Below are positions 16,484 through 17,234 of a DNA stretch of 64,000 bases, in pieces (positions within the stretch are counted from its first letter, which is position 1; every line of letters starts with the position of its first letter). The translations under genes and the position numbers were made by a program. The notes under the pieces are model-generated. The model was not told the origin of the DNA and ran no database searches. It worked only from the letters and a program-made list of their open reading frames with translations. This DNA comes from Fimbriimonadaceae bacterium (GTDB taxonomy: Bacteria; Armatimonadota; Fimbriimonadia; Fimbriimonadales; Fimbriimonadaceae). Location: the NCBI GenBank assembly GCA_026129685.1, contig JAHCHO010000002.1, positions 248,001 to 312,000 on the forward strand, read 5' to 3'.

Positions 16484-16489
16484 TACAAT
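16484..16489 (+). promoter_or_regulatory. -10 element TACAAT for the riboswitch transcript
   Basis: TACAAT predicts transcription starting near 16496, exactly at the 5' strand of riboswitch helix P1 (16497). No convincing -35 is seen. Confidence 0.55.
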
Positions 16490-16496
16490 CTCCGTT

Positions 16497-16598
16497 GCAT
16501 CAAGAGCGGTTCGCCCAAAGGGCGAACCCGGCAACCGAGCCCTGAGACGGCCACGGTGCCCAAACGATGCGCGGCCCGCAGGCTGAAAAACGAGTCTC
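16497..16598 (+). ncRNA. SAM-IV-like (SAM clan) riboswitch
   Basis: Helix P1 pairs GCATC (16497-16501) with GATGC (16566-16570). Then comes AAGAGCGG, as in the SAM-I/SAM-IV core. P2 is a perfect 9-bp hairpin, GGTTCGCCC (16508-16516) with GGGCGAACC (16520-16528), leading into the signature CGGCAACC (16529-16536). P3 pairs ACCG/CGGT and GCC/GGC, followed by the signature GGTGCC (16555-16560). After P1 there is a further hairpin, P4 (16572-16585, loop CGCA). Then GTCTC (16594-16598) can pair with GAGAC (16544-16548) in the P3 loop, like the second pseudoknot of SAM-IV. There is no SAM-I kink-turn or P4 inside P1. The three-base P2 loop would not support the first pseudoknot, so it looks like a reduced variant. 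It precedes the gene at 16635. Confidence 0.82.
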
Positions 16599-16634
16599 TC
16601 GCCTTTCACCTTGTTCGGCCACGAGGACAGCCTC

Positions 16635-17159
16635 ATGGAACACGAACCCACGTCCCCCATCGTCATCGGCCGCTTCGACGGCACCTCGATTCTGATCGAC
16701 CCGCTTACGGGAATGGAGATCGCGACGACCGAGTCGCCTCGCGACCCCTTCGATTCCTTCGCCGACCCGGGGGAGCGCTACGCTCTCGCCGTCCGCTTGG
16801 TCGAGTTCGCGCACGCGCGCTATCCGCGCCATCCCATGTCCGAGCCGTGCCTGGCGGCTGCCCATGCCCTGATTCGCGGAGACGACGACGCGTGCGGGCG
16901 CCTTGACGAGTTGCGCGTCGCGTACGGCAACCTGGCGGGTACCGCCGGCTGGCTCGGGGTCAAGGTCGGCGACCCGAGCGCGGCCACGTGCATGGCGGCC
17001 TACCAGCTCGCTCGTCGCGACCCCGACGTGCTGGAGCGCGCGTTCCAGAACCTCGCGCTCATGGTGTATCTCGCCGAGCGAGGCGGGAATGCCACCGTCC
17101 GAAGAGAGTTCGAGCGCTTCGTCGACCTGCTGATCGAGCAAGGCTCCCGGCTCGGTTGA
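16635..17159 (+). CDS. protein of unknown function under the SAM riboswitch
   Basis: A 174-residue protein, predicted soluble, with no signal peptide or membrane segment. It starts with a short beta region ('SPIVIGRFDGTSILIDPLTG') and continues as an Ala-rich helical bundle ('RYALAVRLVEFAHARYPR', 'LAAAHALIRGDDDACGRL', 'LERAFQNLALMVYLAERG'). I do not recognise a family, and nothing resembles a methionine or SAM enzyme. ATG 16635 is preferred over TTG 16611 because GAGGA lies 7-12 bases upstream; GAGG there could pair with CCTC just before the ATG. It is a single-gene unit, ending at a bidirectional terminator. Confidence 0.72.
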   Translation: MEHEPTSPIVIGRFDGTSILIDPLTGMEIATTESPRDPFDSFADPGERYALAVRLVEFAHARYPRHPMSEPCLAAAHALIRGDDDACGRLDELRVAYGNLAGTAGWLGVKVGDPSAATCMAAYQLARRDPDVLERAFQNLALMVYLAERGGNATVRREFERFVDLLIEQGSRLG

Positions 17160-17199: not shown

Positions 17200-17234
17200 G
17201 GCCCCTGCCCGGTCGAGGCGACCGGGCAGGGGCC
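17200..17234. terminator. bidirectional terminator between the 174-residue gene and groEL2
   Basis: A perfect 16-base inverted repeat, GGCCCCTGCCCGGTCG (17200-17215) and its complement (17219-17234), has a 3-base loop. It sits between two convergent genes. U-runs are poor on both sides, so its strength depends on the stem. Confidence 0.75.

What the first reader, a model, noticed from the sequence alone, without database searches (positions are those of the whole stretch)
16484..17159. SAM-IV-like riboswitch in front of an unknown 174-residue protein
The element has the SAM clan core (AAGAGCGG, CGGCAACC and GGTGCC inside a GCATC/GATGC P1). It also has two marks of the SAM-IV topology: a hairpin just 3' of P1 and a GTCTC segment complementary to GAGAC in the P3 loop (second pseudoknot). 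P2 is an uninterrupted 9-bp stem with an AAA loop, so the kink-turn of SAM-I and the first pseudoknot of SAM-IV seem absent. SAM-IV is best known from Actinobacteria, where it controls sulfur and methionine genes. Here the only downstream gene has no recognisable relation to methionine, SAM or sulfur. This could be a new riboswitch variant and a new SAM-regulated protein family.
Basis: partly seen in the sequence, partly recalled or inferred. Interest (0 to 1): 0.87.

Follow-up and report, generated by a model that had tools for sequence, protein, structure and literature searches.

The report
Known SAM riboswitch before orphan gene
The RNA element is a genuine riboswitch of the already described SAM-I/IV class, which senses the methyl donor S-adenosylmethionine; what is unusual is that it sits in front of a small lone gene with no detectable relatives anywhere, in a bacterium whose only other such riboswitch runs a second SAM-synthetase operon.

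Summary
Window 16492-16601 (+) matches Rfam RF01725, SAM-I/IV, at 53.0 bits (cut-off 41.1). The same place scores 22.9 bits as SAM-I (cut-off 44.4) and is absent from the SAM-IV hits. Among 24 related elements 10 of 19 pairs show compensatory changes, and the SAM-pocket letters are canonical. A -10 box (TACAAT) lies just upstream, an arrangement shared by 31 of 52 SAM-I/IV elements examined, so the mRNA probably begins at the riboswitch. The 174-residue gene has coding-type codon usage, a ribosome-binding site and no neighbour in its transcription unit. It has no relative in Pfam, NCBIfam, PHROGs, PDB, 84,980 genomes, plasmids, phages or 291 genomes of its phylum (Armatimonadota): an orphan, not a family. 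The genome's other SAM-I/IV element heads a MoxR/VWA/second-MetK operon that is spread over many phyla. Best reading: a SAM-responsive, probably translational, probably OFF control of an orphan gene. Its function and the direction of control are not shown.

The parts
16484..16489 (+). -10 hexamer TACAAT; transcription would start at or next to P1
   Evidence: Sequence. A TAnnnT hexamer starts 7-9 nt before the SAM-I/IV model start in 16/22 Armatimonadota and 15/30 other-phylum elements, with hardly any at other offsets. No -35 consensus was found.
16492..16601 (+). SAM-I/IV riboswitch aptamer (RF01725)
   Evidence: cmscan 53.0 bits, cut-off 41.1, model 1-99 complete
16497..16570 (+). P1: 16497-16501 with 16566-16570 (5 pairs)
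16508..16528 (+). P2: uninterrupted 9-bp stem, AAA loop; no kink-turn, no PK-1 strand
   Evidence: all five alignable P2 pairs show changes on both sides among relatives
16530..16560 (+). P3 (16530-16533/16557-16560, 16535-16537/16554-16556, 16539-16541/16549-16551)
16544..16548 (+). PK-2, 5' strand GAGAC in the P3 loop
16572..16585 (+). P5 hairpin directly 3' of P1
16594..16598 (+). PK-2, 3' strand GTCTC
   Evidence: complementary changes in relatives (e.g. GAAGAAC/GTTCTTC in L018)
16623..16634 (+). ribosome-binding site GAGGA inside a small hairpin GAGG-ACAG-CCTC just before the start codon; probable expression platform
   Evidence: sequence and folding; no terminator with a U run between the aptamer and the gene
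16635..17159 (+). orphan gene, 174 aa, ATG start, TGA stop
   Evidence: codon usage; no homologue
17200..17234 (.). perfect 16-bp inverted repeat between the orphan gene and the convergent groEL; transcription-terminator-like, no T run

Best explanation
A functional SAM-I/IV riboswitch at the very 5' end of a single-gene mRNA. The promoter's -10 box abuts P1, so the aptamer folds first; SAM binding fixes P1, P3 and PK-2. The leader between PK-2 and the start codon is only 36 nt, holds the ribosome-binding site and has no terminator, so control is most likely of translation, and most likely OFF at high SAM, as in known SAM-clan switches. The orphan protein would then be made when SAM runs low, together with the genome's other SAM-I/IV target, the MoxR/VWA/second-MetK operon. 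Shown: the class, the structure, the pocket letters, the coding frame and the absence of homologues. Inferred: SAM binding, the direction and level of control, and the co-regulation.
For: Rfam SAM-I/IV above cut-off, full length. SAM-I 22.9 bits, below its cut-off; locus absent from the SAM-IV hits. Covariation on 24 related elements: 95.8% of cells paired against 86.1% shuffled and at most 37.6% slid; 46 double-change cells against 10.5; 0 of 500 shuffles as high. The pocket segments AUC-AAGAG, GGCAACC, GGUGC and GAUG match the model's conserved letters, whereas the spermidine-sensing SAM-I variants change J1/2 and the P3 internal loop (PMC10853860). Promoter position shared by 31 of 52 elements. 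Coding frame. Second element before the MoxR/VWA/MetK operon in the same genome. Same-class elements precede other lone small genes in relatives; one such family keeps its element in two genomes at 37% protein identity.
Against: No binding or expression data. The orphan gene has no orthologue, so conservation of the pairing cannot be tested. Folding shows the ribosome-binding site inside the same local hairpin with and without the aptamer, so no switching mechanism is visible. In this sequence alone the 5-bp PK-2 is not beyond chance; it rests on the relatives. No -35 box was found.
Confidence: 0.8

Rival explanations
1. A relic: a promoter-plus-riboswitch cassette that once served another gene (for example the MetK operon) and was left or carried in front of an unrelated gene, which it now only transcribes; SAM control no longer matters.
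For: In a relative (G008) the same slot between the cytochrome gene and groEL holds a different gene (DUF6584) and no riboswitch was found in that genome, so the slot changes its content. Elements with their own -10 box precede many unrelated genes.
Against: Every helix, the pocket letters and PK-2 are intact; P2 is a perfect 9-bp stem; a decaying element would have lost some of this.
Confidence: 0.12
2. A SAM-clan aptamer that has changed its ligand (as the spermidine variants of SAM-I did), which would explain a target outside sulfur metabolism.
For: Target without a sulfur link; precedent in PMC10853860.
Against: The conserved pocket letters are those of SAM-binding members; elements of the same class in this and related genomes precede SAM-synthetase genes.
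Confidence: 0.05
3. The riboswitch is real but the 174-residue frame is not a gene.
For: No homologue anywhere searched; no family hit.
Against: Codon usage in range of the window's genes in this frame only, GC3 0.86, GAGGA ribosome-binding site 7 nt before an ATG, and the frame ends just before a terminator-like repeat.
Confidence: 0.05

Closest known systems
SAM-I/IV riboswitch (Rfam RF01725; Weinberg et al. 2010; crystal structure Trausch et al. 2014)
   Same: Uninterrupted P2, no PK-1, P3 core, P5 and PK-2; passes the covariance model
   Different: P3 begins with the GGCA/UGCC letters usual in SAM-I and SAM-IV, while most SAM-I/IV elements I fetched from other phyla read GCCA/UGG; the P4 hairpin seen in most relatives is absent here, as in the Rfam consensus
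SAM-IV riboswitch (RF00634)
   Same: P5 and PK-2
   Different: No split P2 and no PK-1; not found by its model at this place
SAM-I riboswitch (RF00162)
   Same: Ligand pocket letters
   Different: No kink-turn, no P4, extra P5/PK-2; 22.9 bits against a cut-off of 44.4

Membership tests
SAM-I/IV riboswitch (RF01725) | covariance-model score above the curated cut-off | tested here: met
   53.0 bits against 41.1, full length
SAM-I/IV riboswitch (RF01725) | P2 without internal loop, no PK-1 | tested here: met
   9/9 pairs, 3-nt loop; definition in PMC2864571 and PMC6890682
SAM-I/IV riboswitch (RF01725) | P5 3' of P1 and PK-2 with the P3 loop | tested here: met
   PK-2 by position and complement in relatives, not beyond chance in this sequence alone
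SAM-I/IV riboswitch (RF01725) | conserved structure with compensatory changes | tested here: met
   10 of 19 pairs, 0/500 shuffles as high
SAM-I/IV riboswitch (RF01725) | P4 helix, as described for the SAM-I/IV crystal structure in PMC6890682 (optional: absent from the Rfam consensus, so it does not define the family) | tested here: not met
   J3/1 is CCCAAAC here; most relatives have a P4 stem, but L017, L020 and L036 also lack it, and so does the Rfam consensus
SAM-I/IV riboswitch (RF01725) | binds SAM | not testable with these tools
   pocket letters canonical
SAM-IV riboswitch (RF00634) | model score above cut-off; split P2 with PK-1 | tested here: not met
   locus not among hits at E <= 10; P2 not split
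SAM-I riboswitch (RF00162) | model score above cut-off; kink-turn in P2 | tested here: not met
   22.9 bits against 44.4

The most novel reading that the evidence does not exclude
SAM-I/IV elements with a built-in promoter mark an undescribed SAM-shortage response spread between phyla: a MoxR AAA+/small protein/VWA-HEXXH/second MetK operon at its core, with satellite genes of unknown function (DUF3293, YbjN-like, several small unnamed families and lone orphans), of which the 174-residue protein is one.
Probability: 0.35. Interest if true: 0.7.

Novelty: new member of a known kind. Interest (0 to 1): 0.42.

Why it matters
The riboswitch class is known, so the RNA itself adds one member in Armatimonadota. 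What is useful is the target: a metabolite sensor of known ligand gives the first functional handle on a gene with no homologues, and the survey around it links the same sensor to a recurrent operon with a second SAM synthetase and to several uncharacterised families in many phyla. I found no paper on that link in the library searched.

Tried and rejected
Homologues of the 174-aa protein: none in Pfam (E <= 10), NCBIfam, PADLOC, PDB sequences, genome contigs, viral contigs, plasmids, phages, or 291 genomes of the phylum (only fragments with E 1e-3 to 1e-2, some across stop codons); one PHROG at E = 0.16, ignored. AlphaFold from the single sequence: mean pLDDT 46, so no fold search was run; the outline (N-terminal strands, then helices) is only a hint. 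Looked for a terminator or a clear anti-ribosome-binding-site switch: none resolved by folding. Considered a viral or plasmid origin of the MoxR operon: one weak viral contig and only distant MoxR hits on plasmids, rejected. Considered that the protein belongs to one of the small families behind other SAM-I/IV elements: all-against-all comparison finds no link. Considered a defence system: no PADLOC hit for the 174-aa protein or the other small proteins, only weak ATPase matches for the AAA+ protein.

Full report
What is in the sequence. A scan of the whole 64 kb window against Rfam gives two matches: a tRNA and, at 16492-16601 on the + strand, SAM-I/IV (RF01725) at 53.0 bits, E = 7.6e-6, over the full model. 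In the whole genome this is the better of two SAM-I/IV matches; the other, at 42.3 bits, lies 186 kb away on the same contig. The SAM-I model gives the same place 22.9 bits against a cut-off of 44.4. The SAM-IV model does not list it at E <= 10.

Which class. Weinberg et al. 2010 describe RNAs that share features of SAM-I and SAM-IV but lack the P2 internal loop (PMC2864571). Zhang et al. 2019 state that in SAM-I/IV P2 is not split in two and PK-1 is missing (PMC6890682). So the variant is not new. The P4 helix that PMC6890682 mentions for SAM-I/IV is not present here; it is present in most related elements but not in L017, L020 and L036, nor in the Rfam consensus.

Is the structure conserved. 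I aligned 24 elements from Armatimonadota. On the RNAalifold structure 95.8% of cells pair, 10 of 19 pairs have changes on both sides, 46 cells carry such changes against 10.5 in shuffles, and no shuffle of 500 reached the observed value on any measure; partners slid by 1-3 columns pair in at most 37.6% of cells. PK-2 (GAGAC/GTCTC) is short and not beyond chance in this sequence alone, but complementary segments at the same two places occur in relatives with different letters, such as GAAGAAC/GTTCTTC in L018 and TTGGAGA/TCTCCAA in L044.

Ligand. The segments that line the SAM pocket (AUC-AAGAG, GGCAACC, GGUGC, GAUG) agree with the conserved letters of the model. The known ligand-switched relatives, spermidine riboswitches, change J1/2 and the P3 internal loop (PMC10853860). 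SAM is therefore the expected ligand; this is inference.

Promoter and leader. TACAAT at 16484-16489 lies 8 nt before the model start and 13 nt before P1. A -10-like hexamer starts 7-9 nt before the model start in 16 of 22 Armatimonadota elements and 15 of 30 elements from other phyla, while other offsets are almost empty. The mRNA thus probably starts at the riboswitch. No -35 consensus is present. Between PK-2 and the ATG at 16635 there are 36 nt with a GAGGA ribosome-binding site inside a small hairpin, and no terminator. Control of translation is the likely mode; OFF at high SAM is inferred from known SAM-clan switches. Folding does not reveal how binding would change access to the ribosome-binding site.

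The gene. The frame 16635-17159 scores as coding only in this frame and is followed by a perfect 16-bp inverted repeat at 17200-17234 and by the convergent groEL, so it is a single-gene unit. It has no match in Pfam, NCBIfam, PADLOC or PDB sequences, one insignificant PHROG, and no relative in 84,980 genomes, viral contigs, plasmids, phages or the 291 held genomes of its phylum beyond noise. In a family member, G008, the same slot between the cytochrome gene and groEL holds a DUF6584 gene, and no riboswitch was found in that genome. The slot is variable; whether the riboswitch and gene arrived together is not known.

Whose genome. The window is therefore from Armatimonadota, very likely Fimbriimonadales. 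This is an inference from lengths and coordinates.

The same sensor elsewhere. In 291 Armatimonadota genomes 18 have SAM-I/IV matches. The second element of the window's genome heads an operon of a MoxR-type AAA+ ATPase, a 150-aa protein, a VWA protein with an HEFLH metallopeptidase-like motif, and a MetK; the genome also has a standard metK elsewhere. The operon is widespread: of 80 loci fetched by its ATPase from many phyla, 62 contain a MetK relative (mostly in the same place after the ATPase) although many contigs end early; 29 of 53 have a SAM-clan core within 700 nt upstream against 4.6% of control segments, and 21 of 50 such genomes have an RF01725 match, about 15 of them directly before the ATPase. 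Other elements precede small genes of unknown function: DUF3293 proteins (one fused to the MetK C-terminal domain), YbjN-like proteins, an HHLWNNxGTW family of about 92 residues, a 226-residue family, a 168/170-residue family, and lone orphans. The 174-residue protein resembles none of them. For the 168/170-residue family both clear homologues in the phylum (37% identity) carry the element; a third, weak match is in a genome without a hit.

Judgement. Ordinary as an RNA, unusual as a target. The finding is a new member of a known riboswitch class with an orphan gene behind it; the wider link to a second-MetK operon and a set of unknown genes is the part that would interest a specialist, and it rests on co-occurrence only.

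Noticed in passing
L014:5019-9540 (own genome, contig 11, about 450018-454540): SAM-I/IV riboswitch before an operon of MoxR AAA+, a 150-aa protein, a VWA/HEXXH protein and a divergent second MetK; the operon recurs in many phyla.
   Followed up: partly
L041:8145-9014 (-): Protein made of the C-terminal domain of SAM synthetase fused to DUF3293, in a gene row behind a SAM-I/IV element; DUF3293 genes follow such elements in three other places (L043, L155, L172).
   Followed up: partly
L162, L165, L167, L169: A family of about 92 residues with the motif HHLWNNxGTW follows SAM-I/IV elements in four genomes of other phyla; no family name was sought.
   Followed up: no
L016:7946-8458, L038:1771-2021, L153/L171: Pairs of SAM-I/IV elements close together on one strand (tandem or with a short gene between).
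   Followed up: no
window 16561-16565, L017, L020, L036: The four elements without a P4 hairpin all precede lone orphan-like genes; all those before MoxR operons in Armatimonadota have P4. Too few to judge.
   Followed up: no
L055/L053:2588-3088: In G008 the slot between the cytochrome gene and groEL holds a DUF6584 gene instead of the riboswitch and orphan gene.
   Followed up: partly
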